A DNA stretch of 21,012 bases, taken from the IMG/VR virus record IMGVR_UViG_3300031711_000029, positions 1 to 21,012 of that record; one strand, 5' to 3'. Positions 1 through 20,794 of this stretch are shown here, one piece after another. The translations under genes and the position numbers were made by a program. The notes beneath the pieces were generated by a model. The model had not been told where the DNA came from, ran no database searches, and worked only from the letters and a program-made list of their open reading frames with translations. How positions within the stretch are numbered: the first letter of the stretch is position 1; the number at the start of each line of letters is the position of its first letter. This DNA comes from a virus.

Positions 1-3000
1 TGATCAGTTCGTCTCGCCGAGCGCCCACAGCAAGACGGGCCTCCTCGGCCGTCGCCCACAACGGGGCAGTGTCAATATTCGTGGGTGCCCCTTTGTAACC
101 AACCTTGCGCCCTTGCTGGTGCCAATCGCTCTGCACCTCGGCAAGATGGAGTGCGCGTTGACCATCGACCGTGCGATCGTCGAAGCGGACATGGGCGACG
201 ACGTTGGGCTCATCCCAGTGGGGGGAGCGGTATGAAGTCCGATCGAAATCCTCGCGCTCGATTGCCGCGCGTTGCCTCAGAAGGTTGCCGCGATCGCGCT
301 CCGTGTCAGCGTAGGCGCGCCGCAGTTCGTCGTTGGAAGTGAGCGGCTTGAATTCTTCCTGAAGAGCGTCAAAAGCCGCGGCGTACTCAGGAGAGTCCAG
401 CGCAACCCGTTGACTGAGGGCCATTACCTCACGGTTTTTTGCCTCAATTTTCTGTCTGATTGCGAGCGTCTGGCCGGCGGTCAACATGCGGCCACGCATC
501 TCTTCCTGCTTGGCCTCAAGATTGACCCTCTGATCGTCGATCTCCTCTAAGCGAGCATTCCGCGCCGTCTCCGCCGCAGTGCGGTCGCCTGGCAGCGTCA
601 GCAGCAGTTCGCGATAGTTCTCGCCGCCAGGGAGTTTGTAGGATTCGAACTTGGTCGCGCCCGGGTAAGAGTCGAAGCCGTCTTGCTCTCCAATCGCAAC
701 AGCATCAGCGATCGCTTCGTCGTCATCGGCGGGGATATTGTCCACGCCGCGCCTGCGCAGGAACTCTCGCGCCGAAGCTCCGGTGAACGCCTCAAACGGG
801 ATGGGTCCCTTCGCCGTCTCTTCAAGCTGAAGGCTATTCGCCCGCACATAGGCGGCGACGTCGTCGCGCGAGATCGCGCCCTTCTGGCCCTTCAGCCAAT
901 CTTCCAGGCCGAGCCACTTCATCTCTTCCGGCTTCACGCCGGGGGTATTCTTGATCGTCGCGAGCCATTGCTCCGGCGACGCCTTCGCCTGCTTGGCGCC
1001 GGTCACCGCGCGCTCGGCCGCCGAGTAGAAGGTCGGAACGGTCGCGGGCTGATTGAGCGTCCGGCCATCTCCAGCCGCAGCGGTCGCCCCCTCGCCGCCG
1101 CGCACGATCAAGCCCTCGTTGCGGTACATCGCCTCAGGGTCGCCGCGCCCCATGCGCGCCGCGCGCGTGGCGTAGCGGGCCGCCCACAGCGTCGCGTTGG
1201 CCTCGGCCTCATTGAGTGGCCGCCCAGCGTCGAGCAATTTCTGCTTCACATCCTCGAAGATCGCCTGGCGCTGTTCGTCGGGCGTCTTGGGCGCCTCGCC
1301 GAACATGGTCGGCTGAGTCCGCATGAACTCGGCTTCGAGGTCGGCGATTTGCTCCTCGCGGCCCTTGGGGGTGTCGAGCTCCGGCTTGACCATCGGGCTC
1401 GGCGCGTCGGCCATGCGTAGGCCTTCCTCGCGCAGCAGCGCGGGCAGCTCGCGGATGAAGGCGCGGGTAACGGCGGCGATGCTCTCGCCTTCCTTCACGC
1501 GCTTGGCGGCGCGGTTGAGCCCGGCGGAGATCGGGCCGGCGCGCGAGCGCAGTCGATCGAGCGCCTCGACAAGCTGGTCGGCGCGGTCGGCGATGCTCGC
1601 ATTGGCATCGGTGAGAACGTTGCCGGCTTCCTCGATAACGTCGGCCTCTTTGGCAAGCGTCGCGAACACGCGCGCGTCGTTTTTCAGCGCCTTCATCGCG
1701 TCGCCGAAGATCTTCATGCGCTCGCGCATCAGGGTGCGGACTTCGCCGCCTTCCATCTGCTTGAGCCAATCGGTCTGGCCCCCGGAGCCGTCGATCTCCC
1801 GAACCGTCCCAGCCGAAAGCGCGTCGCCGATCAGCATCTTCGCTTCGTTGATCGACTGCGGCTTGAGCTTGACGATGTCGTCCATCAGCGCGACGTGAGC
1901 CTCTGGGGGCGCCATATTGCCGACGAGCGAGGCGAACTCCGGCTTCACCGCCCTGTTGAGCACCATGCCCCAGGCGCCGTCGGACAGATTGGCGAGCCCG
2001 CGGCCCTCGCGCACGTCAGCGCGCCCGGTCGGGATCGAGTCGTCCCAGATTTGCGGGGCGTCGCGCAGGATGCGGGCGATGTCCAACGGCTCGCCGACGC
2101 CTTCCTGGATATTCTTCTTGGCGGCGAGCGCGCGCACCATCGCGGGCGTCCAGCCATCCGCCTCACGCACGAGGAATCCAGGCAACTTGACGTCGGCGTC
2201 GGGAGAGCCGGCGACGATCCGCTTCAGCAAGTCGTCGCGCTGGTGGCCGTCGCCGACCATCATCCGCCCATCGAGCCGCTCATGGATGATGGCGTTGTTG
2301 GCCGCCATGGCGTTCCAGTTTTCCGGCTTCGGCACGACGGAGCTCAGCCGCCCGGTGACGCCCTTGGCGTTGGAATTCCCCTTGTATTGGTACTCCTCCG
2401 CGTCGGTCTCAGTGGTGCGCGGGTCGAACGTCATGTTGCGATAGGCCGGCAGACCGTAGCTGTTGTCGATGAACCGCTCGCCGGCCTGGCCACCCGGCGC
2501 TGGCGCCGCTCCAGCGCCGGTGTCAGGCGGGAAGGCGCCAGGGTCACGCGCGGGCGGCGCACGCATCGGCGGCACGGGCGGTCCGACGGTGTCGGGCGAC
2601 TCGGCCTGTGCGACCAGTTCGCGGAAGACGCGCAGTTGCTCGGACGGCTGCACGCCAGCCTCGCGCGGCGGCGCCGTAGCGGCGTCGTTCATCGCCTGCT
2701 GGACTTGCTCCGACGTGATCGAGGTGATTGGCGGCCGGTCGCGGACGCTCTCCGGCACTTCCGGCGGCGTCGGATAGGGGCGCTTGGCGACAGCGGTCCC
2801 CGCCTCGCCCTCGACCGGCTTGCCTTCCCACAGCGGCGGGGCGATCGCGCGGGGCGCGCCGGCTTCCTCTGCGGCTCCCGTCGGTGCGCCGCCGCTTGGG
2901 CGTGGCTGGCGGGGCGGGGCGGCGGCGGGCGCAGCAGGCGGCGGCGGAGCGCCGCGGTCGCTCCAATCGTGGAGATTGGCGTCGCGGTAGGTTGAGCCCT

Positions 3001-4414
3001 CTTCCAGGCCGTTCTCTTTTTCCCACGCATGCACGCGATCGGTGAAATCCTTGACGAGCGGGTCCATTTCCAGCGTCGGCGCCATGCCTTTCGCCCGGCG
3101 CACGAACTCGTCGATCCACGGGCTGGCGTTCGGCCCAAACAGGTTCGACAAGGCGCGCAGGCCGCCGAAGAAGCCGCCTGCCACGGCGCCGAACACCGCC
3201 GCGTCGCCCATGTCCTTGATCGCCGGCACGAGGCCGCTCTCACGGCCAAACGCGCGGTTGGTCGCCTGAAGGTCGGGCTCTCTAAGTCCTGTCAGCCCCC
3301 AGTTGATGATTGCGGTGTTGACCGCGTGCTCGGCAGTGTTGCCGGCCCAACGCAAAACTGGCGAGGCGAAGCGCTCCCCCCATGTCGCCTCGCCGCCGAA
3401 CGGCACGGCGAGCATCGCAACATTGACCGGATCGCGGAAACTGCCTGCAAACCCGCCGACGGCACTGGCGACATCAGCGGCAAACGGCGAGCTGTAGCGC
3501 GCTGCTTTCTGGTTTGCGGAGCTGGCCGCCTGCTCATAAGAGTTGGCGGCGTCATTGGTGAGGACGCTGAGCGACTTGGTGGGCGAGATTGCGTCCAAAA
3601 CATCGCGGGCGACATCAGAGCCACTGCCGCGGTTCTTGGCGAGGTCGGCGCGCGCCTGATCCCATAGGTCGTTTTGCTTCTGACGCACCAGCGCCCAATA
3701 GCGATCGCCGCCGAACAGGCCGTCGGGATTGGCGGGGTTGAGGTATGTCCCCCACGACTGCTGCTTGGCTTGGTCTTGAAGCGCCGCGATCGCCTCATCG
3801 CGGAAGCCGCCATAGGCGGGGTTCGGCAGCGAGACGCCGGTTGCTTCCTTGATCGCATCGTTGGTGCGCTCGATCGCGTCTTCCTGCGCGAGCGAATAGG
3901 AGAGAGAGCCCAGCGAGTTGTGGATCGTCGCGGCGGCGGACGCAGCGGCCGCAGCAACCGCCGGGTGGGTGGGGAGGTCCGGGAATACGGTCTCGCCGCG
4001 GTCGATCGCGTCCTGGCGCGCCTGCGCCGCATTGACGTCGACGTCGGCCTGCGCGGACGCCTGCGCCTTCTCTTCCGGCGTTTGATTGCCGGTCCAGTAG
4101 TTCGGCGCTGGCGGCGGGGCCGGCGTAGAATAGAGAGCCGCGCCGACGGGCGGCTCCGCCTTGGGAGGCTGCTCGCTGACGACCGAGAACGTCGATGCGG
4201 GATTGGCCTGCGGGCCGCTGTGACGGGTCCAGAAGTCGGCGAGCGAGGAAGGGGTCGTAGCGTCATAGCCCTCGCCGTCAGCGCCTCGCCCCGACAGGAT
4301 CGCGGCTGGCGTCCCCGAGAAGTCAGGGTCGGTGGCGCTCGGCCGCGGCGTCGGCGCCGGGGCGTCGGGAATTGGAGACGAGTTCGCGGTGTCGATCGGA
4401 GAGGCGTCGTTCAT
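1..4414 (-). CDS. Very large phage ejection/polyvalent protein with ddrB-like ParB domain (partial, C-terminus beyond left edge)
   Basis: I translated this frame base by base from the ATG at 4414 to position 2: 1471 codons without a stop, so the gene is real but truncated by the window edge. The ATG overlaps the stop of the upstream 1287-residue gene (ATGA), with AGGTGA four bases before it, indicating translational coupling. Residues 1-110 are Pro/Ala/Ser-rich. Residues about 331-341 and 405-426 are hydrophobic and Gly-rich. A Pro/Ala linker lies near 488-511. Residues about 660-840 resemble the ddrB-like ParB-superfamily domain: EYQYKG at 674, the GDGHQR motif with H724, then KKNIQEG and NLSDGAWGMVLN. 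A long charged helical stretch follows. PTFYS starts at 1127, LPGGENYREL at 1261, SPHWDEPN near 1397 and EVQSDWHQQGRK at 1426, all segments I associate with large phage polyvalent proteins. Its slot after three other internal proteins matches T7 gp16, the large ejected protein. Domain names are from memory of the families. The end and total length are unknown. Confidence 0.85.
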   Translation of the reverse strand, partial: MNDASPIDTANSSPIPDAPAPTPRPSATDPDFSGTPAAILSGRGADGEGYDATTPSSLADFWTRHSGPQANPASTFSVVSEQPPKAEPPVGAALYSTPAPPPAPNYWTGNQTPEEKAQASAQADVDVNAAQARQDAIDRGETVFPDLPTHPAVAAAAASAAATIHNSLGSLSYSLAQEDAIERTNDAIKEATGVSLPNPAYGGFRDEAIAALQDQAKQQSWGTYLNPANPDGLFGGDRYWALVRQKQNDLWDQARADLAKNRGSGSDVARDVLDAISPTKSLSVLTNDAANSYEQAASSANQKAARYSSPFAADVASAVGGFAGSFRDPVNVAMLAVPFGGEATWGERFASPVLRWAGNTAEHAVNTAIINWGLTGLREPDLQATNRAFGRESGLVPAIKDMGDAAVFGAVAGGFFGGLRALSNLFGPNASPWIDEFVRRAKGMAPTLEMDPLVKDFTDRVHAWEKENGLEEGSTYRDANLHDWSDRGAPPPPAAPAAAPPRQPRPSGGAPTGAAEEAGAPRAIAPPLWEGKPVEGEAGTAVAKRPYPTPPEVPESVRDRPPITSITSEQVQQAMNDAATAPPREAGVQPSEQLRVFRELVAQAESPDTVGPPVPPMRAPPARDPGAFPPDTGAGAAPAPGGQAGERFIDNSYGLPAYRNMTFDPRTTETDAEEYQYKGNSNAKGVTGRLSSVVPKPENWNAMAANNAIIHERLDGRMMVGDGHQRDDLLKRIVAGSPDADVKLPGFLVREADGWTPAMVRALAAKKNIQEGVGEPLDIARILRDAPQIWDDSIPTGRADVREGRGLANLSDGAWGMVLNRAVKPEFASLVGNMAPPEAHVALMDDIVKLKPQSINEAKMLIGDALSAGTVREIDGSGGQTDWLKQMEGGEVRTLMRERMKIFGDAMKALKNDARVFATLAKEADVIEEAGNVLTDANASIADRADQLVEALDRLRSRAGPISAGLNRAAKRVKEGESIAAVTRAFIRELPALLREEGLRMADAPSPMVKPELDTPKGREEQIADLEAEFMRTQPTMFGEAPKTPDEQRQAIFEDVKQKLLDAGRPLNEAEANATLWAARYATRAARMGRGDPEAMYRNEGLIVRGGEGATAAAGDGRTLNQPATVPTFYSAAERAVTGAKQAKASPEQWLATIKNTPGVKPEEMKWLGLEDWLKGQKGAISRDDVAAYVRANSLQLEETAKGPIPFEAFTGASAREFLRRRGVDNIPADDDEAIADAVAIGEQDGFDSYPGATKFESYKLPGGENYRELLLTLPGDRTAAETARNARLEEIDDQRVNLEAKQEEMRGRMLTAGQTLAIRQKIEAKNREVMALSQRVALDSPEYAAAFDALQEEFKPLTSNDELRRAYADTERDRGNLLRQRAAIEREDFDRTSYRSPHWDEPNVVAHVRFDDRTVDGQRALHLAEVQSDWHQQGRKVGYKGAPTNIDTAPLWATAEEARLAVGARRDELI

Positions 4415-7400
4415 TCAGTCACCTGTGCATCGTTGGTGACGGTCACCATGCCGGGGGTGTTGCGGTATGGCTGCGGGGCTGGCGCCGGAGCGCGGCCCGC
4501 TGGCTGGGCGGGCGCGGCAGGCGGCATCGTTGGGCCGGTGTTGGCGATGTAGGAGCCCTCATTGCGCTTGCGCAGCGAGGCGTCAAGCGACGGGTCTTGG
4601 AGATCAAGCATCCAAGGCTTGCCCGTCGTGTGGTCCATGACGACATGGTCGCCGTCCACCTGGCCGTCGCGATAGACCTGATACTTGCCGCGGAACACGC
4701 CATCGCGATCTGGCATCGCCATCAGGGTCGAGCCGTTGATCTGGTTGGCGCTGATCGGCTGGCCGTTCGCTCCCATCGGCGGGTTTTTCATGCCCTGCAA
4801 GTCGGCGTTGGTGATCGAGCCGATGACCTTGTTGAAGTCGTCGGCCTTGATCTCGCGCGGCACGACAACCTTCCCCGCATCGTGATTCCAGAACGTCCCT
4901 GGCGTCATGCGATCGGTCAGGCCGCCATACTGGGCGCCATCGTGGACGGAAGCGCCGAGCGCGCGGTTGTAGTTCGAGTTGATCAAGTCCTGCGCGTTGT
5001 CGAGCATCCCCTTGGGCTTGGCGTCAATGCCCTGGCGCTGCGCGTCGGCCGTCATCAGGATATTCGCCTCGCCGCGCACGCGTGCTTCGCCGTCGGGCCC
5101 GAAGTGCGACAGCGCCGTCCCAACCGGGTCCGTGTAGGATTTCAGGACGCTGTTGGAAAAGTCGGGGAGGTCCTTCGACGCCACCTTGTCCTGGCGCTGG
5201 TGGACCACGCTGGCGATGTCTTGAATGATCTGCGGATCGTCGCCGGCAAGCGCGTGAGCGCCGACCGCCTGGAATGCCGGAACGTCGCCGCCGATCTCGC
5301 GGAACGCCGCGGCCGCGTCCGGGCCGCCACCTTTCACGAGGTTCTCGGCCAGCGTGACCATCGGGTCGCCGCCCTGCGCCGCGATCTTGCGGAATTGCGA
5401 TTTCTCGTCCGGGGTGAACACCGGCGCCGTGCCGGGCGCGAGGCCGAAGCCCTTCTCGACCACGGTCCGATCGACGAGCCGGCCTTCCATCTTGGCGGCG
5501 AGTTGGGGGTCGCTCGGATCCAACGCTTTCGTGCCGTTCGGCAGGAACCCGGCCCGTGAGGCGCGTTCGTAAGGGTCGGTCTTGATGTCGGACTGGTAGG
5601 TCTTCAGGTATTTCTGCGAGGCGTCGAGAGTCGAAGCCATGATCGGCAGGTATGGATCGTCGGGGTTCCGCGCCTTGGCATAGGTGAACGCCGCCGCCTG
5701 TTGAGAAACGTCCGCCGCCACTTCGGCCGGTGACTTGAGCCGGTAGCTCATGAGCTGGTTGCGTGCCTGGTCAAGCTGGGCGAAACGCAGCCGCACCGCC
5801 GGGTCCGGAGAGTTGGCGTAGGCTCCCTTCAGCGAGTCGTATTCCTTCGGCTCGATCGGCTGGCCGCTGGCGAGGTCGCCAATCCGCGCATCGAGGTCCT
5901 TCTGCGCGCTGGTCGAATAGCGCTGGGCGTCGGCCGCCTTCTGTTTCTGGATCTGGTCGATCTTCTGCTGGAGCTCAAGGCCGAGCTGAGCCTTGTCTTG
6001 CGGGTGCATCCAGTCGATCGGCATGCCGGTGCGATATGGCGCGGGCGCTCCAGGGGCGCCGGACGCGCGCACGTCGGGCGCCTTCTGGAGCGTGCCGTCC
6101 TGCATGACGAACGACCATGAGCCATCCTGCGCCGGCGTGACGCCGGTCGCGCCCTTCGGCCACATTGTCTCGGGCGGGATGAGGTGCGGGTTGACGACGC
6201 CACCCGGCAGCTTTGGCGTGATCCCTTGGGTCGCGTCGCTCTTGACCCCGGCGTCAGCCTGGGCGACCTGCTGCGGCGGCGGGGCAACACCTGGGACAGC
6301 GTTGCCCTTGGCATCGGTAGCGACCAGCGTCCCGTCAGCAGCAGGCGCCCACGGGCCGCCAGCCGGCGACATGGCGCCGACCTTGGCCGCCATGGCGTTA
6401 GGGGACGACGCCACATCGTTGGCGGGCGCGGCTGTTGGGGCTTCCCACGTCACCTTGCCGCCAGCGATCGGCGGCAAGCCGATGAATGGGTTGGCCGTCA
6501 TCCCAGCCGGCATGCCCGCGGCTGCGGTGACGCTGGATCCAAACCCAGCGCGCTTCGCCACGTCGGCATAACCATCAGCCGTCGGATGAACTCCATCAGG
6601 GCTGATCTTGGTCGGATCAAGCGGGACGAAGGATGCGCCATTCGAGGTCGCGGCCTTGTTGAGCGCGTCGTTGAGCGACAGGCCGCTGACCTTGACGGCG
6701 TCGAACTTCGGCCCGACGCCGACGATCGTCACTTGGCTCGGATCGAGCCCCTTCGCCTTGAGCGCCTTGAGCTCGGCCGCGACATAGGCGGCCGGGTCCT
6801 GCCCCGGGTCATTCGAGGCTCCGGTCGAGAGGATGATCCGCTTGCCGGCGAGTTGCTCGGCTGGGAGCGCGTTGATGTTGGAGAGGACGGTCTGCGGCGG
6901 CAGGCTTTCCTTCGCCCAGCCTTCGGTCGCCTTCTGGCCGACGGCGCCGGCCACGCCGACGCCAAGGCTATCGCCGATCGCGCTGAAGGAGCCGCTCGCG
7001 GCAGCGGCCGCCGAGCCCGGCTTGCCGCCGAGTACCCCGACGTTCTGGTCAAAGGAGCGGATCGTGTTGAGGCGGCCGGTGTAATTGTCGCCGGCGCGCG
7101 GCGTTGCGTCGGTGTAGCCGCGCGGGCGCTCGTAGTGCATCTCGGCGTCGGCGATTTGCTCCGGCGTCGAGGCGGCGTTCACCTGCGCGTCGATCGGGCT
7201 CGCGCGGAGTTCCTGCAAGGCGGAGACGGCTTGCGTCTGCCAATCCTTGCCGCGCATGTCGAGCCGGGTGTCCTTGTGGCCGTAGAGGCCATGCCCTTGA
7301 GGTGCCCCATTGGCGTCCGGGTCGTGCACGGCGTTGGGGTTGAAGGAGCTTTCATTGGCCCCAGCCCCGGTCAGCATCAACGCTTCTTTCGGCGTCGCCC

Positions 7401-8274
7401 CTTGCGATACGAGGAATTGGTAGTGGGCTTCCGGCGACAGCGTCCCGCTTTCTCCAGGCTGACTCCACGGCTTCGTGTAAGGCGCATTGACCGTGCCGAA
7501 CCCGCTCACGCCCGGCGGCGTCGGCTGGTCCCACGCCGTCGTGCCGGACGGCCCGAAGGTGAAATACTTCTCCAGGGCTTCAAGCCTCGACGTGTCGCCG
7601 GTCTTCTCGGCCTCGTCTATCTGCGAGCGCACCCACGCGCGCCCGTAGGAAGCGCCGAACTGCTGGCGGCGCTGGACGTATTGCTCGGGGGTGATCGCCC
7701 CGCTCTGCATCAAAGAAGAACCGCGCTGATTCCATGCGTCGATCGCCGCGCCGCGCTGCGCCTGCCCGTCGGGCGTGTCAGGCGCGCCAATCGCCGACGA
7801 GATCACATCGTCGCCCTGCGTCATCCAGTCGGCGGTGTTCGCGTTGTTTTGCAGCTTGTTGACGTGGCCGGTGACGCGCTCCTGATCCTCGGTGAGGTCG
7901 GCGCTCTTTAGCGTCGCCCATCGGTTGGCTAGATTTGGGTCTGAGAATGTAGCCTTCGCCGCGTTGAAGTTGTCGCCGTAGGCTTTAGTGAAATCAGTAG
8001 CCGCGGCAGGATCCGTGGTTTGCGACAGGTCTGTGGTTGTCTTGATGCGACCGACCGCATAGGCGGCATCGGCGTTTGCCATCTGCGACGCATCTTGCTG
8101 GCGCGCTTGGACGGCTCCAAACTGCGCCATGTCCGAGCCCAACGTCTCGAAGCCGTGGGCAAACGCCTGCGCGCCCTGCGCCAGGGCTTGCGGGTTCCAG
8201 CCTGGCAAGCCCTGGCGCCGCGGCAGCTTGTCGGGAAGATCGCCTACGTCTTGTTCGGTGGGGAGCTTTGCCAT
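4411..8274 (-). CDS. Internal virion/ejection protein (gp15/gp16-type) with lysozyme-like and SGNH-hydrolase-like domains
   Basis: This 1287-residue protein starts with ATG at 8274. Residues 1-250 are helical, rich in Gln, Ala and Asp, like internal core proteins. Residues about 278-405 resemble a phage-tail lysozyme/transglycosylase domain: SPEAHYQFLVSQGATPKEA, then AGANESSFNP with E308 as the likely catalytic acid, then GHGLYGHKD. Residues about 425-580 carry SGNH/GDSL blocks: GDS with S436 as nucleophile, STGASND with N488, and DGVHPTADGY with D560 and H563. Residues 600-760 are a Pro/Gly/Ala-rich linker. Residues 760-1220 are mostly helical, with a Gln/Lys-rich coiled-coil-like part near 780. 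The C-terminus is Pro-rich. In T7, ejected core proteins form a channel across the envelope and one cuts peptidoglycan, so a wall-opening role at infection is inferred. The enzymatic activities are predicted only. The gene ends in a four-base overlap with the next large gene. Confidence 0.9.
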   Translation of the reverse strand: MAKLPTEQDVGDLPDKLPRRQGLPGWNPQALAQGAQAFAHGFETLGSDMAQFGAVQARQQDASQMANADAAYAVGRIKTTTDLSQTTDPAAATDFTKAYGDNFNAAKATFSDPNLANRWATLKSADLTEDQERVTGHVNKLQNNANTADWMTQGDDVISSAIGAPDTPDGQAQRGAAIDAWNQRGSSLMQSGAITPEQYVQRRQQFGASYGRAWVRSQIDEAEKTGDTSRLEALEKYFTFGPSGTTAWDQPTPPGVSGFGTVNAPYTKPWSQPGESGTLSPEAHYQFLVSQGATPKEALMLTGAGANESSFNPNAVHDPDANGAPQGHGLYGHKDTRLDMRGKDWQTQAVSALQELRASPIDAQVNAASTPEQIADAEMHYERPRGYTDATPRAGDNYTGRLNTIRSFDQNVGVLGGKPGSAAAAASGSFSAIGDSLGVGVAGAVGQKATEGWAKESLPPQTVLSNINALPAEQLAGKRIILSTGASNDPGQDPAAYVAAELKALKAKGLDPSQVTIVGVGPKFDAVKVSGLSLNDALNKAATSNGASFVPLDPTKISPDGVHPTADGYADVAKRAGFGSSVTAAAGMPAGMTANPFIGLPPIAGGKVTWEAPTAAPANDVASSPNAMAAKVGAMSPAGGPWAPAADGTLVATDAKGNAVPGVAPPPQQVAQADAGVKSDATQGITPKLPGGVVNPHLIPPETMWPKGATGVTPAQDGSWSFVMQDGTLQKAPDVRASGAPGAPAPYRTGMPIDWMHPQDKAQLGLELQQKIDQIQKQKAADAQRYSTSAQKDLDARIGDLASGQPIEPKEYDSLKGAYANSPDPAVRLRFAQLDQARNQLMSYRLKSPAEVAADVSQQAAAFTYAKARNPDDPYLPIMASTLDASQKYLKTYQSDIKTDPYERASRAGFLPNGTKALDPSDPQLAAKMEGRLVDRTVVEKGFGLAPGTAPVFTPDEKSQFRKIAAQGGDPMVTLAENLVKGGGPDAAAAFREIGGDVPAFQAVGAHALAGDDPQIIQDIASVVHQRQDKVASKDLPDFSNSVLKSYTDPVGTALSHFGPDGEARVRGEANILMTADAQRQGIDAKPKGMLDNAQDLINSNYNRALGASVHDGAQYGGLTDRMTPGTFWNHDAGKVVVPREIKADDFNKVIGSITNADLQGMKNPPMGANGQPISANQINGSTLMAMPDRDGVFRGKYQVYRDGQVDGDHVVMDHTTGKPWMLDLQDPSLDASLRKRNEGSYIANTGPTMPPAAPAQPAGRAPAPAPQPYRNTPGMVTVTNDAQVTE

Positions 8275-8341: not shown

Positions 8342-8962
8342 CTAGTAGCCGAGATCGTAGCTGACGGCCGTCTGCGGCCCGTAGCCGCCGGCGTACCCGC
8401 CGCCCTGCAACTTCATCGGCGTGCTATAGCCGCTGTAGGGGTTGCTCAACGACAGCGAACGGAACATCGAACCGACGCCGCTCGCCATCGTGCCGGCCGC
8501 GGAGAGTGTGTCACTCTGTTGGGTGATTTCGCCCTGGTACTTCGCCGCTTCGCCCTGATTGTAGAGCCCGGCCGCTTGGTTCTGCCCCTCAGACAGGCTC
8601 ATCAGCGCATTGTATTCGCCGCGCTTGGCGATGTTGCCACTGAGGTTGAGGACGGACGGCGAGGTCGCATCCACACCGCTCGCCGCGGCGCGCGCCTGCA
8701 AGGTCGACTGGACAAGGCGCGTCTGGCGGCGCTGCTCTTCCATCTGCCGCTGGCCCATTGCAGTCGAGCTTTCAGCCTGCTGCATGGCCTCTTTCTGCTG
8801 GTACTCACCCATCGCCTTGGCGTTTGCGCCAGCGGCCATCGTCCCCGCAGCACCAACGGCGGCGCCAGCGAGCGACGTGACGGCGCCCATCACCCCCAAC
8901 GTGATCGGATCGAACGCCGCGGTTTCCGAGAAACTAAGGAGTCGATCAAAGGTCCTTGACAT
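8342..8962 (-). CDS. Internal virion protein, gp14-like
   Basis: This 206-residue protein begins with ATG at 8962, inside the end of the gp13-like gene (17-base overlap), so translation is probably coupled. Near the N-terminus, residues about 20-50 form an Ala/Gly-rich hydrophobic stretch (VMGAVTSLAGAAVGAAGTMAAG) that could insert in a membrane. It is followed by a Gln/Glu/Arg-rich helical segment around residues 55-90 and a Gly/Tyr/Ser-rich C-terminus. This layout, a short hydrophobic start then Gln-rich helices, is typical of the T7 gp14 type of internal core protein, and T7 gp14 is about the same size (196 residues). Position between gp13-like and the long ejection proteins supports the call. 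No catalytic motif is seen. The assignment rests mainly on layout and gene order. Confidence 0.75.
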   Translation of the reverse strand: MSRTFDRLLSFSETAAFDPITLGVMGAVTSLAGAAVGAAGTMAAGANAKAMGEYQQKEAMQQAESSTAMGQRQMEEQRRQTRLVQSTLQARAAASGVDATSPSVLNLSGNIAKRGEYNALMSLSEGQNQAAGLYNQGEAAKYQGEITQQSDTLSAAGTMASGVGSMFRSLSLSNPYSGYSTPMKLQGGGYAGGYGPQTAVSYDLGY

Positions 8963-9329
8963 AGATCACCCCCCCGGGTGCCACTTCCTTATGAAAACCG
9001 AGACGTAGGAGCCATCTTTCCCCGCTCTCGATTGTCGTGGCAGTCGCGACCACCCGCTTGATGCCGCCATTTTTAGCCTGCGCGAGCCCCGCCAGTCCAG
9101 CTTTGTGCAGTGCAACCGGGTACTTGTGGGCCTCGGGGGCGAGATCGGCGAAGGCCAGCCGCACGCCGTTTGGCAGCATGCAGATCCCTCCAACGCCAAT
9201 CACCTTGCCGTCGGCCTTCCCCGCCAGCGCCAGAACCCGATAGGGCGGCAACTGCGCGCCGCCGGAGAAATTGGCGGTGTATTCGGCGACGTCCGCGCGG
9301 GTCGCCGGCCCGACCTCGATCTTGACCAT
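8946..9329 (-). CDS. Small GNAT-like / gp13-like virion-associated protein
   Basis: This is a 127-residue protein. Its ATG at 9329 shares a base with the TGA of the tail nozzle gene (TGATG), a standard coupling arrangement. The sequence has the feel of a minimal N-acetyltransferase (GNAT) fold: an opening beta strand KIEVGPATRADV, an R-x-x-A-L-A strand, the GKVIGVGGICML strand pair, a helix rich in Ala, Leu and Lys, then RVVATATTIESGERWLLRLGF, which resembles the closing strand and 'LGF' turn of GNAT proteins. The usual acetyl-CoA pyrophosphate loop (Q/R-x-x-G-x-G/A) is not clear, so enzymatic activity is doubtful. In T7-like phages the gene directly after the tail nozzle is gp13, a small protein needed for virion morphogenesis. 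That role fits the position. Confidence 0.65.
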   Translation of the reverse strand: MVKIEVGPATRADVAEYTANFSGGAQLPPYRVLALAGKADGKVIGVGGICMLPNGVRLAFADLAPEAHKYPVALHKAGLAGLAQAKNGGIKRVVATATTIESGERWLLRLGFHKEVAPGGVIYVKDL

Positions 9330-12157
9330 CAGTTCGTCGATTCAATGGAAAAAGTCACCCCGTTGATCGTCGCTGGGTTTGGCGAGGCAGATTGGAGATA
9401 GAGGCGCGGATCGGTGTCGTGGTCGGAGCCGATCTCGAATTGCTTCGAGTCGTATTGCGCCCAGACCGTCCCGTCGGCGACGAGCGCTCCATACTCCACC
9501 TCCGGCAGGTCGTCGAGCTTGCCGTTCGGCGTGAAGATGCCGTTCGGCTGATTGTCGGGGTCGTTCGGCGTCCACGTCCCGTAGCGCACGCCCTTCCACC
9601 ACGTATTGGTCAGCACGAGGCCGCAGTGGTCGAGGCGCTTCACCTGATTGATGGCTGAGCCCATTTGCGCCGCGTAGGCGAGCTTGGCTGAGATAAATTC
9701 GGCCTGATAGGGCAGGCCGGCGACTGCGGCGATGACCGCGACGCCATTGGGGATGGTGACTGTCCCGTTTGATTGGACAACGGCCGTGCCGAGATCGCCA
9801 AAGTGGCCAGCGCCGCCGTCCCCCCAGATCGCCACGGTCTTGCCGATGAGGTGATTGAAGCCGGAAAGGATGGTTGCTGGCGCCCCCTGATAGACGAGGT
9901 TGGCGTCGACGCATTTCGAGATCGCCGCCCCCTGGCACTCGTCGACCCGCGCCCACTTCTCCAGATAGCGAACGTGCTGGCCCTGGATGACGCGGTTGAT
10001 GACGAAGTAGACCTGATCCTCGCGAAAGCCCGGCAGGATGGCGATGCCTTCGATCACGCCGTCGGTCTGCATGCGCCACCAAGCGATGACGTCGTCGTCG
10101 ATGTCGTAGATCAGCGACGCCATGATTCCGTCGGTGCGGATCATATTGATGCGCGTGTCGGGCTGGCGCTGCACAGCCATGTCGACGAAGCCGGGAAGCC
10201 CGATGTCCGGATTCAAGCGCGTGAGGTCGCTCGGCTTATAGTTGTAGATCCGAATGTCGTAGACGAGATCGTAGAGCCGCCGGCCCGACTGGTCGAGATA
10301 AACCACGCGCTGATCGACAGCGACCGCCTGCAAGCCGTAGGCGCCATTCGTCACGGAGCGCCGCAGAATGAAATTCGACGGCGTCAGCGGGCTCTCGATC
10401 GCGTCCGACATGGCGGCGAGGATCGACGTGTCCGCACCAGCGAGCATATGGTCGATCGACACCATCCAATTGATGTTGGCGATCGGGCCTTGGCCGACGG
10501 CCGTGTCGAGCGGTGCCGCATCGCCGGTCGCATCGTAATCGAAGTTCGTGTAGTCGTCGGAAATCGAGCCCCAAAACTTGTCGGCGCCTGACCACCACAG
10601 CCGCCCTTGGTGCAGAGTTGTCGCCGTCGGATAGCCCTGCCCGGCCGACCACTCGGATTGCAGCCAGTCGTGCGTCTTGTCTGTGCCCCAGAAGGGGACA
10701 AGCACTTCAGCGTTGGCGACGGTCGCACTGGTGATTGATGTGATGTGACAGACGCCGTAATTGCCGCCGCCGCCATAATTGATAACGATGACCGCGCTGC
10801 CGCTGACGTAGTTCCCCGGCTCGAAGCCTATCTGATACCAGACGATCTCGTTGTTGAGGCCGTCGGTGATCGTGTCGCTTTGGTTCGAGGTGTACGTCTT
10901 GTAAGTCGAGAACCCGGTCGTCGCGCTGGTGAACGAGCGCTGCACGCTGATCGTGCCGGTCCATGTTCCTGAAATCGTGAATGTGAAATTGCGGTCTGCG
11001 GTCGCCGTATTTTTGACGTTCCCGGAGCCGTCGACCGTGCTGACGTAGGAAACGCCGGACACGCGCAGCGCATCGGTGAAGGTCCCGTCAAACGAGACTG
11101 TCTCGTTGATGTATTGCCCGGTGTGGAAGAGCCGGAACAGCGTACCGACATCGTCCACGGTGAAAAGGCCGCCGCTCGCCGTCAGCGTGACGTTGCCATA
11201 GAGGGCGCTGGGCTGAAGCGTGAGCGAAGCATTGCTCGGCGCACCGGACATAGGGCCCTTGATCGGGCGATATTTGACGATCGACCAGCTTGTCGGCGTA
11301 TAGCGGTTGATCTGGTATTGAGGGTATCCGGTGCAGGCGACGTAGACGAAGTCGCCAGATTGCGTGGAGCGGATGAGCGATGGAGTGACCGAAGGCGATC
11401 CAATCGCGTCCGCGCCCCACGGTGCCGGCAATGTGAAGACGCCCGCGGCTTCGATGGCGATCGAGGTGACCTTCACCTGCTGCGCCCATGTCGGCAGCGA
11501 TTGCGCATTCGTGTTAGCGTTCTGGACGGAGATCGTCGCTGAAAACTGCGGGTAGACCGTCGTCGCTCCAGGCGTGAAGGCGAGCGAGTAGGTCCCGGTG
11601 TCGAGTTTTGCGACTGGGAAAACATCATCGAGACCAGCCGTCGTCCCGATCGCGAAGTTGATCGGTCCATTAGCGACGACAATGCGCAGCGCGTGTTCGG
11701 TGTTGAGGTCGCCAGGCGCCACCGACATGGCGACGCTCGCATTCGCGGTAGCGCCGTTGTTCATCCCTGAGAAAGACAGGCCGCCGCTTGTGCTTGATGT
11801 CGCTGTGCCGGTCGTTGTGATCGACCACGAGCCGAAGGCCGGGATCGTCGTGGCGACCGCCGCGCGGGTGACGAGCGCATCGTCGATCCAAATCCGCATA
11901 AGGTTGGCGGTAAGTTCGATCAGCGCCGTGTCGGCGAAGGCGGCGACGAACGGGATAATCTTGGTCGGCGCATTGTTGTAGATGCCACCGACATATTGCG
12001 TCCCTGGCCGCAGCATCATTGGCCCGAGCACGCGCGGCAGATAGTTGATCTGGGATTGCGCGGAAAGGCGCAGATGCTCGATGTCGCTGCGGGCCATTGC
12101 CAGCAGGCTGACTTCTCCACGGTTTAGGGCCGCGAGAATTTGGTTCTGCCGAGCCAC
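9329..12157 (-). CDS. Tail nozzle protein, tail tubular protein B-like (gp12-type)
   Basis: This 942-residue protein starts with GTG at 12157 (residues MARQNQILAALNRGEVSLLA). AGGAGG lies five bases upstream, which decides the start. The N-terminal 70 residues, with LNRGEVS and RVLGPMMLRPGTQYVG, match the opening of podovirus tail nozzle proteins, where N-G-E-x-S and 'RPG' motifs recur. Residues about 100-480 are Thr/Ser/Gly-rich beta structure. Near residues 505-535, GYPTATTLHQGRLWWSG and FWGSISDDYTNFD give the signature I associate with these nozzles. It would form the distal part of the short tail that contacts the cell surface. T7 gp12 is 794 residues, so this one is longer, mainly in the beta-rich first half. 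It follows the tail tube gene after a 19-base gap. Confidence 0.88.
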   Translation of the reverse strand: MARQNQILAALNRGEVSLLAMARSDIEHLRLSAQSQINYLPRVLGPMMLRPGTQYVGGIYNNAPTKIIPFVAAFADTALIELTANLMRIWIDDALVTRAAVATTIPAFGSWSITTTGTATSSTSGGLSFSGMNNGATANASVAMSVAPGDLNTEHALRIVVANGPINFAIGTTAGLDDVFPVAKLDTGTYSLAFTPGATTVYPQFSATISVQNANTNAQSLPTWAQQVKVTSIAIEAAGVFTLPAPWGADAIGSPSVTPSLIRSTQSGDFVYVACTGYPQYQINRYTPTSWSIVKYRPIKGPMSGAPSNASLTLQPSALYGNVTLTASGGLFTVDDVGTLFRLFHTGQYINETVSFDGTFTDALRVSGVSYVSTVDGSGNVKNTATADRNFTFTISGTWTGTISVQRSFTSATTGFSTYKTYTSNQSDTITDGLNNEIVWYQIGFEPGNYVSGSAVIVINYGGGGNYGVCHITSITSATVANAEVLVPFWGTDKTHDWLQSEWSAGQGYPTATTLHQGRLWWSGADKFWGSISDDYTNFDYDATGDAAPLDTAVGQGPIANINWMVSIDHMLAGADTSILAAMSDAIESPLTPSNFILRRSVTNGAYGLQAVAVDQRVVYLDQSGRRLYDLVYDIRIYNYKPSDLTRLNPDIGLPGFVDMAVQRQPDTRINMIRTDGIMASLIYDIDDDVIAWWRMQTDGVIEGIAILPGFREDQVYFVINRVIQGQHVRYLEKWARVDECQGAAISKCVDANLVYQGAPATILSGFNHLIGKTVAIWGDGGAGHFGDLGTAVVQSNGTVTIPNGVAVIAAVAGLPYQAEFISAKLAYAAQMGSAINQVKRLDHCGLVLTNTWWKGVRYGTWTPNDPDNQPNGIFTPNGKLDDLPEVEYGALVADGTVWAQYDSKQFEIGSDHDTDPRLYLQSASPNPATINGVTFSIESTN

Positions 12158-12176: not shown

Positions 12177-12809
12177 TCACTCGTCTCCAGGCCAATAAGG
12201 AAGGATCGACCCGCGGGGCGCGCGAGATTGAACCCATGTGCCGACCGGCATGGACCTCGGCGGCAAGTCCATAGCGTCCTTGGCGATCGCTCGGCGCCGG
12301 ATCATCTCCTTGCGCTTCTCAAGCTCTTCCATCTTTTGCGACCACTGCTTGACCCGCGGGCAGAGCAGCCACGCGAGGTGGATGCCGAGATACTCAGAGA
12401 ACCCCGGCGTCCACAGGCTCATGTTCCAACCCCAATCGGGGTCGCTGGAGACGTATTTGACGTAGATCGGCGAAATGTCGCTGTACCAGACGTTGTTCAA
12501 ATCATCGTAGCGGCGCAGCGGCGGATCGAAGATTTCGTTGTCGGCGACGAGATACGTCTTGGTCCAGTCAGGCGGCTTGGGGAACGCGTACTTGTAGCCG
12601 AACTGCGGAACCTCGTTGGCGCTCGCATCCACTTTCACGTTTCTGATCGCGTGCAGCCAATATGCGTCATAGAGCACCGTCAGCACAGCGTCTGACCACT
12701 CGCTGTCCAGCAAGCGCCGTGGCTCGCGATTCTCCGTCAGGGAGCCAAGGGGGCGCTCTTCGAGCCACCGCAGCGCTTTGTTGTAGACGCCGAGCTGAGA
12801 CGCGGCCAT
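12177..12809 (-). CDS. Tail tube / adaptor protein, tail tubular protein A-like (gp11-type)
   Basis: This is a 210-residue protein (T7 gp11 is 196). The ATG at 12809 has GAGGG eight bases upstream. The N-terminus, LGVYNKALRWLEERPLGSLTENREPRRLLDSEWSDAV, is the classic start of the gp11 family: a helix 'YN.AL..LG' followed by a 'L.E...R.L...W' segment. The family then has a long helix ending in aromatic residues, here LYDAYWLHAIRNV. The middle (FGYKYAFPKPPDW, YVKYVSSDPDWG) also follows the family pattern. The protein would form the ring joining the portal to the nozzle. It sits directly before the nozzle gene, as in T7. The C-terminal third is Lys/Arg/Glu-rich helix followed by a Pro-rich tail. 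Confidence 0.88.
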   Translation of the reverse strand: MAASQLGVYNKALRWLEERPLGSLTENREPRRLLDSEWSDAVLTVLYDAYWLHAIRNVKVDASANEVPQFGYKYAFPKPPDWTKTYLVADNEIFDPPLRRYDDLNNVWYSDISPIYVKYVSSDPDWGWNMSLWTPGFSEYLGIHLAWLLCPRVKQWSQKMEELEKRKEMIRRRAIAKDAMDLPPRSMPVGTWVQSRAPRGSILPYWPGDE

Positions 12810-15008: not shown

Positions 15009-16058
15009 TCACTCGATTTTAGCGAACTCGCCCCATGCCAACTTCGCCTCTTCGCAATAGGCCGCGTAGGCTTGCTCCTTCGTCCAGAACGAGCCTATGC
15101 GGCGACCGACGCCATCGACCTTGATCCATGCACCCCACTTACCCTCTGCGGCGATGTAGGAGACGCCGCGGTAGCCGCTTGTGTTGCGGCTGGAGGTCAA
15201 AGCATTGGCGATGTTTTGGGATTGGGTTGCCTCCCGCAAGTTGCAGAGGCGGTTGTCGTCGCGGATGTTGTTTTTGTGGTCGATCTTCTTGGCAGGCCAA
15301 ACGCCGTGAGTGATCACCCACGCCAACACGTGCGCGGGATATTGCTTGCCGAACAGTCCAACCCGCCAATAACCGTCTGGATTGAGACGGCCTGCCACCG
15401 TGCCGATCTGCCCGCGGAAACCAAGCGCGCGCCTCCATTTCAATTTGCCGGTAGCCGAATCGTAGGACAGAGCATCCCTGACTTCGTCGACTGTCGGCCG
15501 CTCATTCCGACGGCGCGGCTTTTTCTCGCGCGCCGCTGGCGACGGCTTCACGAAGTCGACCCCGCGAGCAAATTCTCCATAGGTCGCGATCGCCGCCTTT
15601 TCGTAAGCCGCCGCCGCTTCCTCTATCGTCTTGAAGACTCCGAGATACTGCTTGCCGAGTTGGGCCTGCCAGAGGCCGCTGGCCTTGTGCCAGCAGACAC
15701 CCTTCACGCCAGACCTGTTGGTGATTGGGCGCCCTTGGTTCGCCATGTTTTGCGCCTGCGTGCACTCACGCAGGTTGCGAATCCGACAGTCGGCCTTGTC
15801 GCCGTTCCGATGGTCGAGACGCTCTGGCCAGCGCCCATGCACCCATGCAAATGCGGCGTGATGGGCAAGCACTATTGAGCCGTCGATCCGAATGCGGCGA
15901 TAGCCATCATCCTTGTCGACGCGCGCGCCGGCCTCTTGCCCGGCAATGGCGCGACCGGACGTGATCAGCCACGCAAAAACGCCCGTCGCCGGGTCATAAG
16001 CGACATACTGCCGCAGCCGCTCGATCGACGGGCGCTTGGCGAGATTGGTTCTCACCAT
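15009..16058 (-). CDS. Double HNH-AP2 homing-endonuclease-like protein
   Basis: This 349-residue protein (ATG at 16058) contains the same two-domain unit twice. Unit 1 (about 12-165) has an HNH part with HHAAFAWVHGRWP, LDHRNGD (D82, H83, N85) and RNLRECTQAQNMAN, then an AP2-type DNA-binding part from NRSGVKGVCW to YGEFA (114-164). Unit 2 (about 189-347) repeats it: AHVLAWVITHGVWP, IDHKNN (D260, H261, N263), CNLREATQSQNIAN, then NTSGYRGVSY to WGEFA (292-346). A basic linker, KKPRRRNERP, joins them. Single HNH-AP2 proteins of about 150-200 residues are common free-standing homing endonucleases in phages. Both units keep the HNH core residues. The gene lies between vWA and capsid and is unlikely to be needed for the virion. 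It could instead be a nicking or packaging-associated HNH, but the AP2 pairing favours homing. Confidence 0.88.
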   Translation of the reverse strand: MVRTNLAKRPSIERLRQYVAYDPATGVFAWLITSGRAIAGQEAGARVDKDDGYRRIRIDGSIVLAHHAAFAWVHGRWPERLDHRNGDKADCRIRNLRECTQAQNMANQGRPITNRSGVKGVCWHKASGLWQAQLGKQYLGVFKTIEEAAAAYEKAAIATYGEFARGVDFVKPSPAAREKKPRRRNERPTVDEVRDALSYDSATGKLKWRRALGFRGQIGTVAGRLNPDGYWRVGLFGKQYPAHVLAWVITHGVWPAKKIDHKNNIRDDNRLCNLREATQSQNIANALTSSRNTSGYRGVSYIAAEGKWGAWIKVDGVGRRIGSFWTKEQAYAAYCEEAKLAWGEFAKIE

Positions 16059-16190
16059 GGGTCGCCGTCTTTGCGGCGGCGATACCAGGTGCGCCTAGAC
16101 ATCCCGAGTGCGGCCCACGGCTGTTGCGCCTCGATCGTTGAAGCGCGCTCCGACGTCAGCGGGCGCCGGAAAGGCCGTGGGCCTTCGCTT
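16052..16190 (-). other. Helix-turn-helix-like reading-frame remnant without a start codon
   Basis: Between the vWA and HNH-AP2 genes, a minus-strand frame ending at the TGA at 16052-16054 encodes LTSERASTIEAQQP followed by WAALGMSRRTWYRRRKDG. The second part looks like a resolvase-type helix-turn-helix. The frame is open from inside the end of the vWA gene, but the only ATG lies within the motif. It ends two bases past the HNH-AP2 ATG, in another frame. It is most likely a fragment left by rearrangement, or a non-ATG-started small protein. Confidence 0.4.
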
Positions 16191-16824
16191 TTGGGGCATG
16201 CGGACCGAAACGAGCGCGGTCTTCATCCGAATAGTTCATCGCTACCCCGCGCGCGCCGTATGAAGCCCGCATGCTGGCGGTCGCACTCATTGTCTCCGCA
16301 AAATTGGCTGAGTCGACCGACATAGTCTGACCACGCAGATTGCCAAGGTCAGCCCCTTGGGCGGCGTTGTCGAAGTCGGCGCCGAGGAAGATAACCTGCC
16401 AACCGCGCGCGCGGCACCGATCTAGGAGCTTCTTCGCAGACTCGCGATTGTGTTCGCGCGATTCGTTCTCATGGCCATCGGTCATAATCACGATCGCCGA
16501 TTTCTCCGGCGCGTCCGCATCGGCGACGGTAACGAGACGACCGACGGCGTCATAAAGCGGCGTCATCCCGCGTGGCGATACTTCGTGGTCGCCGATCGGC
16601 TTCCATGCCGACGCGACAACATCTTTCCGCAAAACGTCAAAAGGGCCAGCGCTGTCGAACACGGCGACCGTGACGAGAATGTTCTTGGTTTCCTTGTCCT
16701 TGGCGAGCCCTTGAACGTAGGCATTCACGCCACCGAGCGCGTCAGACCAGCGCGACGCCATCGAACCAGAGCGATCGAGCAGGATATAGTCGTGCTGCGC
16801 TGCCACCTTCTTTGCCTTAGCCAT
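16156..16824 (-). CDS. von Willebrand factor A (vWA) domain protein
   Basis: This 222-residue protein starts at the ATG at 16824, with GGGAG seven bases upstream; the preceding TTG codon is less likely. Almost the whole protein is one vWA domain: the first strand HDYILLDRSGSM carries the D-x-S-x-S metal site (D17, S19, S21), the second site is T88 in RGMTPLYDAVG, and the third is D116 in IVIMTDGHENES. A further strand, GWQVIFLGAD, follows. The last 60 residues are polar, with Ala/Ser-rich helix. An intact MIDAS metal site usually means metal-dependent binding to a partner protein. No MoxR-type ATPase or other usual vWA partner is near. The gene follows the terminator after the scaffold gene, so it may have its own promoter. 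Its role in the phage is unknown. Confidence 0.9.
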   Translation of the reverse strand: MAKAKKVAAQHDYILLDRSGSMASRWSDALGGVNAYVQGLAKDKETKNILVTVAVFDSAGPFDVLRKDVVASAWKPIGDHEVSPRGMTPLYDAVGRLVTVADADAPEKSAIVIMTDGHENESREHNRESAKKLLDRCRARGWQVIFLGADFDNAAQGADLGNLRGQTMSVDSANFAETMSATASMRASYGARGVAMNYSDEDRARFGPHAPKAKAHGLSGAR

Positions 16825-16858
16825 CAAATATCTCCCATCGCCGGGGTGGCGATGACAC

Positions 16859-20150: not shown

Positions 20151-20781
20151 CGAGAGCCTCCTCTATTCCGAGACCTCTCTTAAGGCGAACCCTCACACCG
20201 CTCGCCGTAAACGATGGGGCGGCGACTCGATATATGTCCATGAACGGCATCAAATTGCCGCGGTAAACGTATCTTGGCGTCGTGCGTTTGTTGTTGTTTT
20301 GCTCGGTGCGCGTCGCCCACCGCACATTACCGGGGAAATACCCCTTGTCGTTGTCAATGCGGTCGACTGTGTGCTGCGGGCTGGGGCGCGGACCGACGTT
20401 GGCGAAGAATGCCTGAAAACTCACGCGCCACTCATCGCAGACGGCAATGCCGCGCGAAGAGTACTCCTGGTAGCGCTTGTCGCTCGGGGTGTAGCAACGC
20501 GCCAGCATGCAGCGCCACGATTTATATTCCGGCGACTGCGACATGCCGTGCGTGACCGCCGCGTCCGCCAATTCCTTCTGTCGCGCCGTAGCCGTCTCGA
20601 CATGGTAGCAGCCGCAAGACTTAGTGTTGCCGCACTTGAGATTTTGGCCGACGACAGAGACGTAATTCCCGCAGTCGCAGCGGCAGAGCCATTTGATTGG
20701 CCCAGACGGCGCGCATCCGTCCCGCCGCAACACCGCGAGGCGCGCGAACTTCATGCCGGAGAGATCGACAAGCGCCGGCAT
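20134..20781 (-). CDS. Zinc-ribbon HNH-type endonuclease-like protein
   Basis: This is a 215-residue protein. I chose the ATG at 20781 because GGGAG lies seven bases upstream and the frame above it overlaps the end of the neighbouring gene in another frame. Residues 8-60 form a likely zinc ribbon: MKFARLAVLRR, then C33, C35 and C37 in CRCDCG, then C50, C56, C58 and H60 in KCGNTKSCGCYH. Residues about 88-160 carry the HNH-like part: YKSWRCMLARCY, GIAVCDEW, then H137, D140, R141 and D143 in HTVDRIDNDKGYFPGNVRWAT. The C-terminal part may bind DNA. Such proteins are widespread in phages as free-standing endonucleases. It is wedged between a small structural gene and the portal, consistent with an insertion, and it overlaps the portal start. 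Confidence 0.82.
   Translation of the reverse strand: MPALVDLSGMKFARLAVLRRDGCAPSGPIKWLCRCDCGNYVSVVGQNLKCGNTKSCGCYHVETATARQKELADAAVTHGMSQSPEYKSWRCMLARCYTPSDKRYQEYSSRGIAVCDEWRVSFQAFFANVGPRPSPQHTVDRIDNDKGYFPGNVRWATRTEQNNNKRTTPRYVYRGNLMPFMDIYRVAAPSFTASGVRVRLKRGLGIEEALGGPAG
20157..20163 (-). promoter_or_regulatory. Ribosome binding site for the portal gene, inside the HNH gene
   Basis: GAGGAGG on the minus strand lies six bases before the portal GTG and within the last codons of the HNH gene. It decides the portal start. Confidence 0.85.
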
Positions 20782-20794
20782 TGAAGGGCTCCCG

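What the first reader, a model, noticed from the sequence alone, without database searches (positions are those of the whole stretch)
1..4414. Giant polyvalent protein in the gp16 ejection slot
Seen: at least 1471 residues, open to the edge, coupled by ATGA to the lysozyme/SGNH protein, with a ddrB-like ParB motif (GDGHQR, H724) and later segments PTFYS, GGENYREL and QSDWHQQGRK. Known: polyvalent proteins of phages and conjugative elements combine many domains and are thought to enter the host with the DNA to counter defences or modify host functions. Inference: here the ejection motor protein itself may be the carrier of such effector domains.
Basis: partly seen in the sequence, partly recalled or inferred. 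Interest (0 to 1): 0.7.

Follow-up and report, generated by a model that had tools for sequence, protein, structure and literature searches.

The report
ParB-like clamp in phage ejection protein
A short-tailed phage has, in the gene position of the protein that phage T7 shoots into the cell ahead of its DNA, a very large protein that combines a fold known from ParB (a DNA-gripping, nucleotide-switched clamp) with add-on host-targeting domains, which suggests a concrete, testable way such phages might grip and pull in their DNA.

Summary
In detail: an open-ended 1471-residue ORF (4414..2, minus strand), ATGA-coupled to the lysozyme/SGNH gene, with every quoted motif at the stated place. Gene order matches T7-like podoviruses (pelagiphages, cyanophage P-SCSP1), and the ORF sits in the gp16 slot. 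It has three recognisable parts: a conserved N-terminal core; a 330-residue ParB module; and a C-terminal domain cut by the contig end. The ParB module is not Pfam ddrB-ParB (tested, no match; P1 DdrB as control matches at 2e-39). Its AlphaFold model (pLDDT 93) matches chromosomal ParB/Noc over both the CTPase-type domain and the HTH-type domain (Foldseek probability 1.00). More than 450 viral contigs carry it, usually in 790-1100-residue proteins directly after a gp15-slot gene. In larger members the same scaffold gains ADP-ribosyltransferase, zeta-toxin kinase, helicase or LPD domains, so 'ejection-slot protein as effector carrier' is supported at family level. In the window itself the only candidate effector is the truncated C-terminal domain, an unnamed and widespread domain with a GNAT-like predicted fold. 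Inferred mechanism: the ParB module is the cytoplasmic DNA clamp of the ejectosome. Virion presence, nucleotide binding and DNA binding are untested.

The parts
2..4414 (-). Giant gp16-slot ORF, at least 1471 aa, truncated at its C-terminal side by the contig end
4411..4414 (-). ATGA stop/start overlap coupling the gp15-slot and gp16-slot genes
   Evidence: the same 4-base overlap in 47 of the 85 relatives that have a gp15-slot neighbour
3092..3964 (-). Conserved N-terminal core (residues about 151-441), shared with compact 790-1100 aa relatives
   Evidence: SI2 phage protein matches the N-core profile at 2e-68
3146..3202 (-). Gly/Ala-rich hydrophobic segment (residues 405-423), candidate membrane helix
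   Evidence: mean hydropathy 1.37; a similar segment in most relatives; below the usual 1.6 cut-off
2486..3091 (-). Pro/Ala-rich linker, residues 442-643
1415..2485 (-). ParB-like module, residues 644-1000
2096..2443 (-). ParB/Srx-type N-domain (model residues 15-130, protein 658-773)
   Evidence: 7bm8 Z 8.1, rmsd 2.8, 94 aligned; 6ryk Z 8.3, rmsd 3.1, 99 aligned
2237..2254 (-). GDGHQR, residues 721-726, aligned with GERR of ParB
2099..2125 (-). AAKKNIQEG, residues 764-772, aligned with the ENLQR motif of ParB; N768 invariant
1808..2098 (-). HTH-type DNA-binding domain (model 130-226, protein 773-869), first HTH helix shortened
   Evidence: 4umk_A Z 8.1, rmsd 3.9, 93 aligned; alignment
1415..1807 (-). 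Helical tail of the ParB module
2..1081 (-). C-terminal domain ('CT', from residue 1112), truncated; GNAT-like predicted fold with large insertions
   Evidence: model made from a relative, L113
4411..8274 (-). gp15-slot protein, 1287 aa, with inserted lysozyme and SGNH domains
7111..7428 (-). Phage_lysozyme2 (residues 283-388), E 9e-5, below the curated cut-off
6565..6843 (-). SGNH/GDSL hydrolase-like (residues 478-570), E 0.01, below the curated cut-off
8342..8962 (-). gp14-like internal virion protein (phrog_418)
   Evidence: E 2e-26
9329..12157 (-). gp12-like tail tubular protein B
   Evidence: homologues in syntenic phages
12177..12809 (-). gp11-like tail tubular protein A (phrog_394)
18423..20150 (-). 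Portal / head-tail connector (PF12236)
   Evidence: E 1.7e-60

Best explanation
The ORF is the gp16-equivalent ejection protein of a T7-like podovirus, probably of an alphaproteobacterium. It consists of a conserved N-terminal core that works with the gp15-slot tunnel protein, a ParB/Noc-type module, and a variable C-terminal part that in this phage begins with a GNAT-like polyvalent-type domain. Working model: the protein is packed in the head, threaded out before the DNA and crosses the inner membrane; its ParB module then closes on the entering genome in the cytoplasm as a nucleotide-switched DNA clamp or ratchet, while the C-terminal domains modify host targets. Shown by sequence: the slot, the module and its homology to ParB, and the swapping of C-terminal domains in relatives. 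Inferred: packaging, ejection, nucleotide and DNA binding, clamping, and any effector activity.
For: Slot: portal, capsid, TTPA, TTPB, small acetyltransferase-like gene, gp14-like, gp15-slot, then this gene, as in Lederberg EXVC029P, HTVC028P and P-SCSP1g. Of 123 ParB-module proteins, found by the module alone, 85 directly follow a gp15-slot homologue, 47 of these with the same ATGA overlap, and 101 carry the N-core. Fold: AF2 pLDDT 93.2; the first 30 Foldseek rows are ParB, Noc or Spo0J, 22 of them at probability 1.00; two-domain matches 7nfu Z 8.4, rmsd 4.6, 195 aligned and 6t1f Z 8.4, rmsd 4.7, 175 aligned. Sequence: profile match to chromosomal ParB runs colinearly through GERR, ENLQR and the HTH; score 25.7, above all 100 block-shuffled controls (maximum 22.8). 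The module is in the 2563-aa gp16-slot protein of the isolated cyanophage P-SCSP1g, E 1.5e-45. Mechanism lead: T7 gp16-C binds DNA without sequence preference, is modelled in the host cytoplasm, and mutations there release the clamp that stops entry at about 850 bp (PMC8954989). Effectors on the same N-core and ParB scaffold: ART-PolyVal (L038, L189), zeta toxin (L042), Sno-type helicase (L021), LPD23 (L037, below cut-off).
Against: No virion proteomics. The acidic residues that ParB uses for metal and CTP hydrolysis (recalled: E in GERR, E in ENLQR) are H and K here, so hydrolysis may be lost or altered. The first HTH helix is shortened. Hydrophobic segments are weak for membrane helices. No detectable similarity of the module to T7 gp16. 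Giant relatives such as Ruegeria phage 45A6 and the Salipiger prophage carry the module without the N-core, so it can also travel as a polyvalent domain.
Confidence: 0.5

Rival explanations
1. The ParB module is an injected NTP-regulated nuclease or nucleotide-degrading effector, as proposed for DdrB-like ParB domains, and not a clamp for the phage's own DNA.
For: Iyer et al. 2017 argue this for DdrB-like ParB domains and list DNase/NTPase activities of ParB/Srx domains (PMC5512222); the module also sits in polyvalent giants without the N-core.
Against: Both the CTPase-type and the HTH-type domains of ParB/Noc are kept, which a lone nuclease would not need; it is near-constant in the compact gp16-slot proteins, as expected for a core function.
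Confidence: 0.25
2. The ParB module is structural only: a degenerate fold used for core assembly or as a DNA spacer, without nucleotide switching.
For: Catalytic acidic residues replaced and HTH shortened.
Against: Q676, K678, G723, H724, R726, N768 and D778 are invariant in 57 sequences at 24-48% identity to the window, which suggests a ligand site.
Confidence: 0.2
3. The protein is not ejected: it is an infection-expressed polyvalent or genome-maintenance (partition) protein that happens to lie beside virion genes.
For: No proteomics for any member; some members are prophages.
Against: Conserved overlap with the gp15-slot gene, N-core shared across the family, and the same slot in isolated lytic phages; no match in 72,556 plasmid records.
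Confidence: 0.12
4. One reading: a ddrB-like anti-defence protein.
For: ParB superfamily, virion-gene context, and a weak profile similarity to DdrB in the helical tail.
Against: PF18763 does not match (control); the similarity to DdrB is reached by 2 of 100 shuffled controls; DdrB podoviral prophages lack the N-core and the gp15-slot relative.
Confidence: 0.15

Closest known systems
T7 gp16 (internal core / ejection protein)
   Same: Position after the gp14 and gp15 genes; large; expected to be ejected
   Different: No ParB fold reported; T7 gp16 has an N-terminal transglycosylase, whereas here the lysozyme is in the gp15-slot protein; known gp16-like proteins are 609-1337 aa (PMC8954989), this family reaches about 4000
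P-SCSP1 cyanophage 2563-aa protein in the gp16 slot (MPP-C clade)
   Same: Same slot and same ParB module (E 1.5e-45); its authors suggested internal virion proteins from size and position only (PMC9860041)
   Different: No N-core match at the thresholds used; 25-29% identical in the module to a relative
Chromosomal ParB / Noc / KorB
   Same: Two-domain fold; R and N of the nucleotide motifs; Q of the NPxQPR motif kept
   Different: GERR is GHQR, ENLQR is KNIQE, HTH shortened, no ParA partner seen, part of a much larger phage protein
P1 DdrB and DdrB-like ParB (PF18763)
   Same: ParB superfamily domain in a phage protein near virion genes
   Different: Profile does not match; different N-terminal context
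N4 virion RNA polymerase
   Same: Giant multi-domain protein ejected with the genome (PMC12633501)
   Different: No RNA polymerase domain detected here
Polyvalent proteins (ART-PolyVal, LPD families)
   Same: The CT domain co-occurs with ART-PolyVal and LPD38; relatives on the same scaffold carry such domains
   Different: The window protein itself matches no Pfam polyvalent domain

Membership tests
DdrB-like ParB (PF18763) | Match to the curated profile | tested here: not met
   none in the window and 8 relatives at E 10; positive control P1 DdrB 2e-39
ParB/Noc CTPase-clamp fold | ParB/Srx domain plus HTH domain in one unit | tested here: met
   AF2 pLDDT 93; Foldseek probability 1.00 (22 of the first 30 rows, all ParB/Noc/Spo0J); matches of 175-195 residues at rmsd 4.6-4.7; profile above all shuffles
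ParB/Noc CTPase-clamp fold | CTP binding and hydrolysis | not testable with these tools
   R and N of the motifs invariant, catalytic acidic residues replaced; needs biochemistry
gp16-type ejection protein | Gene directly after gp14-like and gp15-like genes in a podoviral structural cluster | tested here: met
gp16-type ejection protein | Detectable homology to T7 or P22 ejection proteins | tested here: inconclusive
   Profiles of the slot proteins found no T7 chain in PDB; a gp15-slot relative matches phrog_992 'head protein' and phrog_342 'internal virion protein with endolysin domain'
gp16-type ejection protein | Present in virions and delivered to the cell | not testable with these tools
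   needs mass spectrometry and delivery assays
Polyvalent protein | Several unrelated effector domains in one virion- or transfer-linked protein | tested here: inconclusive
   No Pfam effector domain in the window protein; relatives with the same scaffold meet it; the truncated CT domain is GNAT-like only by fold, Z up to 9.9

The most novel reading that the evidence does not exclude
A large group of podoviruses uses a ParB-type, nucleotide-switched DNA clamp inside the ejected gp16-equivalent to capture and ratchet the incoming genome, and grows effector domains on the same molecule, so the DNA-entry motor and the effector delivery vehicle are one protein.
Probability: 0.3. Interest if true: 0.85.

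Novelty: new variant of a known kind. Interest (0 to 1): 0.62.

Why it matters
How ejected podoviral proteins hold and move DNA before transcription takes over is unsettled; T7 gp16-C is proposed to clamp and ratchet DNA (PMC8954989). A recognisable ParB fold in that slot, in hundreds of phages including an isolated cyanophage, gives the clamp idea a concrete chemistry (nucleotide binding, clamp closure, known mutant classes) that can be assayed at once. It also annotates a class of giant 'hypothetical' proteins and one unnamed 500-residue domain found in at least 573 viral contigs.

Tried and rejected
Pfam, NCBIfam and PDB sequence searches with the window protein gave no credible hit. PHROG phrog_10691 matches (4e-36) but is of unknown function. 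ddrB-ParB Pfam search in the window, eight relatives and 185 gammaproteobacterial genomes: nothing, so no family alignment from there. Profile comparison with DdrB gave only a tail match not separable from shuffles. PDB profile searches of the gp15-slot, gp16-slot and CT alignments found no relative. The sequence profile alone does not find ParB in PDB, so the ParB call rests on the predicted fold plus the shuffled-profile test. Phrog_7348 'endolysin' and the 'lysin' labels on CT-domain proteins look like labels inherited from other domains of giant proteins; no lysin domain was found in CT. The Nature 2026 SNIPE paper uses ParB only as a label. Foldseek found no significant PDB match for CT (best E 0.1); GNAT rests on the VIA second look only. 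Artefact of assembly is unlikely: L179, L020 and L021 have the same gene order.

Full report
Observation. The window is a linear 21,012-base IMG/VR record. ORF 4414..2 on the minus strand has 1471 codons and runs off the edge. Its ATG overlaps the stop of the 1287-aa gene as ATGA. All quoted motifs are present once, at the stated places, including H724.

Context. The genes upstream in the transcript are portal (PF12236, 1.7e-60), scaffold-like, capsid (phrog_3437), TTPA (phrog_394), TTPB, a 127-aa protein (phrog_4177) in the place annotated 'acetyltransferase' in pelagiphages, a gp14-like internal virion protein (phrog_418, 2e-26), the lysozyme/SGNH protein and then the giant. The same order is annotated in Pelagibacter phages Lederberg EXVC029P and HTVC028P and, from TTPB onwards, in cyanophage P-SCSP1g. 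The portal is closest to pelagiphage portals at about 27% identity. The nearest relatives of the whole cluster are L179 (uncultured Rhizobiales MAG; TTPB 67% identical), L020 and L021. Hosts of ParB-module prophages are mainly Alphaproteobacteria such as Stappia, Methylobacterium, Aureimonas and Rhodobacteraceae.

ParB module. Residues 644-1000 align with 454 viral-contig loci and 35 bacterial-genome loci. Q676, K678, G685, G723, H724, R726, N768, D778 and A780 are invariant in the 57-row alignment. The AlphaFold2 model has mean pLDDT 93.2 and pTM 0.85. Foldseek against PDB lists ParB, Noc and Spo0J chains in its first 30 rows, the first 22 with probability 1.00 and the others 0.95-0.99. VIA-align covers both domains: Noc 7nfu Z 8.4, rmsd 4.6, 195 residues; ParB 6t1f Z 8.4, rmsd 4.7, 175 residues; several rows with higher Z have rmsd above 11, as one would expect if the two domains sit at a different angle. 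A profile alignment with twelve chromosomal ParBs plus Spo0J is colinear over 152 columns: GHQR over GERR, KNIQE over ENLQR, then the HTH and the following helices. Its score, 25.7, exceeds all 100 block-shuffled controls (maximum 22.8). The score against DdrB, 24.4, is reached by 2 of 100. PF18763 does not match any member tested although P1 DdrB does. I therefore call it ParB/Noc-like and not DdrB.

Family anatomy. Among 123 ParB-module proteins, collected by the module only, 101 carry the N-core profile and 85 directly follow a gp15-slot homologue; 47 of these have the same 4-base overlap. About 21-22 of them were used to build those profiles, so the counts lean slightly upwards. Complete members have a median of 1085 aa; 13 of 103 exceed 2000. 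The smallest typical form, about 790 aa, is N-core plus ParB module, as in Dunaliella viridis virus SI2. The module is also in the 2563-aa gp16-slot protein of P-SCSP1g (1.5e-45), which the discoverers of that clade took for an internal virion protein from size and position (PMC9860041). On the N-core and ParB scaffold, relatives add ART-PolyVal (L038, L189), zeta toxin (L042), Sno-type helicase (L021), or LPD23 and HTH domains (L037, LPD23 below its cut-off). Other giants (Ruegeria phage 45A6, Salipiger) have the ParB module, helicase and LPD38 without the N-core. L002 and L102, syntenic with the window, have the CT domain in the slot but no ParB module. The slot is thus modular.

C-terminal domain. 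From residue 1112 the window enters a roughly 500-residue domain with no Pfam or NCBIfam model, found in at least 573 viral contigs, often beside ART-PolyVal. The window stops within it, after QSDWHQQGRK; relatives continue with PDAPFKTTW, ELALKR, GYDRVAWTTG and GGEGMKGFYD. The AF2 model of a complete relative (L113; pLDDT 85.9) has no significant Foldseek PDB hit. In the VIA second look the top rows are almost all GNAT-fold proteins: mycobacterial ICL2 C-domain Z 9.9, rmsd 3.0, 137 aligned; NatD Z 9.2, rmsd 3.2, 130 aligned; AtaT Z 8.9, rmsd 4.5, 133 aligned. That the ICL2 C-domain is GNAT-like is from memory. I take it as a probable GNAT-fold domain with large insertions; acetyl-CoA binding is inference.

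Mechanism. For T7, gp16-C is modelled in the host cytoplasm, binds DNA without sequence preference, and mutations in it release a clamp acting at about 850 bp of genome entry (PMC8954989). A ParB-type clamp in the equivalent slot fits that role. Replacement of the ParB catalytic acids by H and K argues for altered or absent hydrolysis, which would still allow a one-way clamp. The lysozyme sitting in the gp15-slot protein matches the known swap of the peptidoglycan hydrolase between gp16 and gp15 homologues (PMC8954989). Ejection, clamping and effector activity are inferred, not shown.

Novelty. Ejected giant proteins (N4 RNA polymerase) and ParB-superfamily domains in virion-linked phage proteins (DdrB; PMC5512222) are known. 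I found no paper describing a ParB/Noc-type module in the podoviral gp16 slot (open-access library only). I file it as a new variant of a known kind.

Noticed in passing
window 4411..8274 (-): gp15-slot protein holds inserted lysozyme and SGNH/GDSL-like domains (both below curated cut-offs), while its C-terminal half is the conserved tunnel-like part; a hydrolase moved from gp16 to gp15 as in K1E.
   Followed up: partly
window 2..1081 (-); L113:4586-6202: Unnamed 500-residue domain (FYS..GVKPEEMKW..GGENYREL..EIQSDWHQ..AWTTG..GGEGMKGFYD), in at least 573 viral contigs, no Pfam or NCBIfam model, GNAT-like predicted fold, often beside ART-PolyVal.
   Followed up: partly
window 15009..16058 (-) and 20134..20910 (-): Two ORFs that by eye look like HNH/AP2-type homing endonucleases within the structural gene cluster, the first with a repeated unit; not searched against profiles.
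   Followed up: no
window 16156..16827 (-): ORF that looks von Willebrand A-like (DRSGSM motif; phrog_7371, 4e-39, unknown function) between scaffold and capsid genes.
   Followed up: no
window 8946..9329 (-): 127-aa protein in the place annotated 'putative acetyltransferase' in pelagiphages (between TTPB and the gp14-like gene); conserved in L002, L020, L021, L037 and L179.
   Followed up: partly
L313-L392: DdrB-like ParB proteins (about 950 aa) form a separate podoviral prophage-type group without the N-core or gp15-slot relatives of the window.
   Followed up: partly
L042:8837-13207: Same N-core and ParB scaffold with a zeta-toxin kinase domain at its C-terminal part.
   Followed up: no
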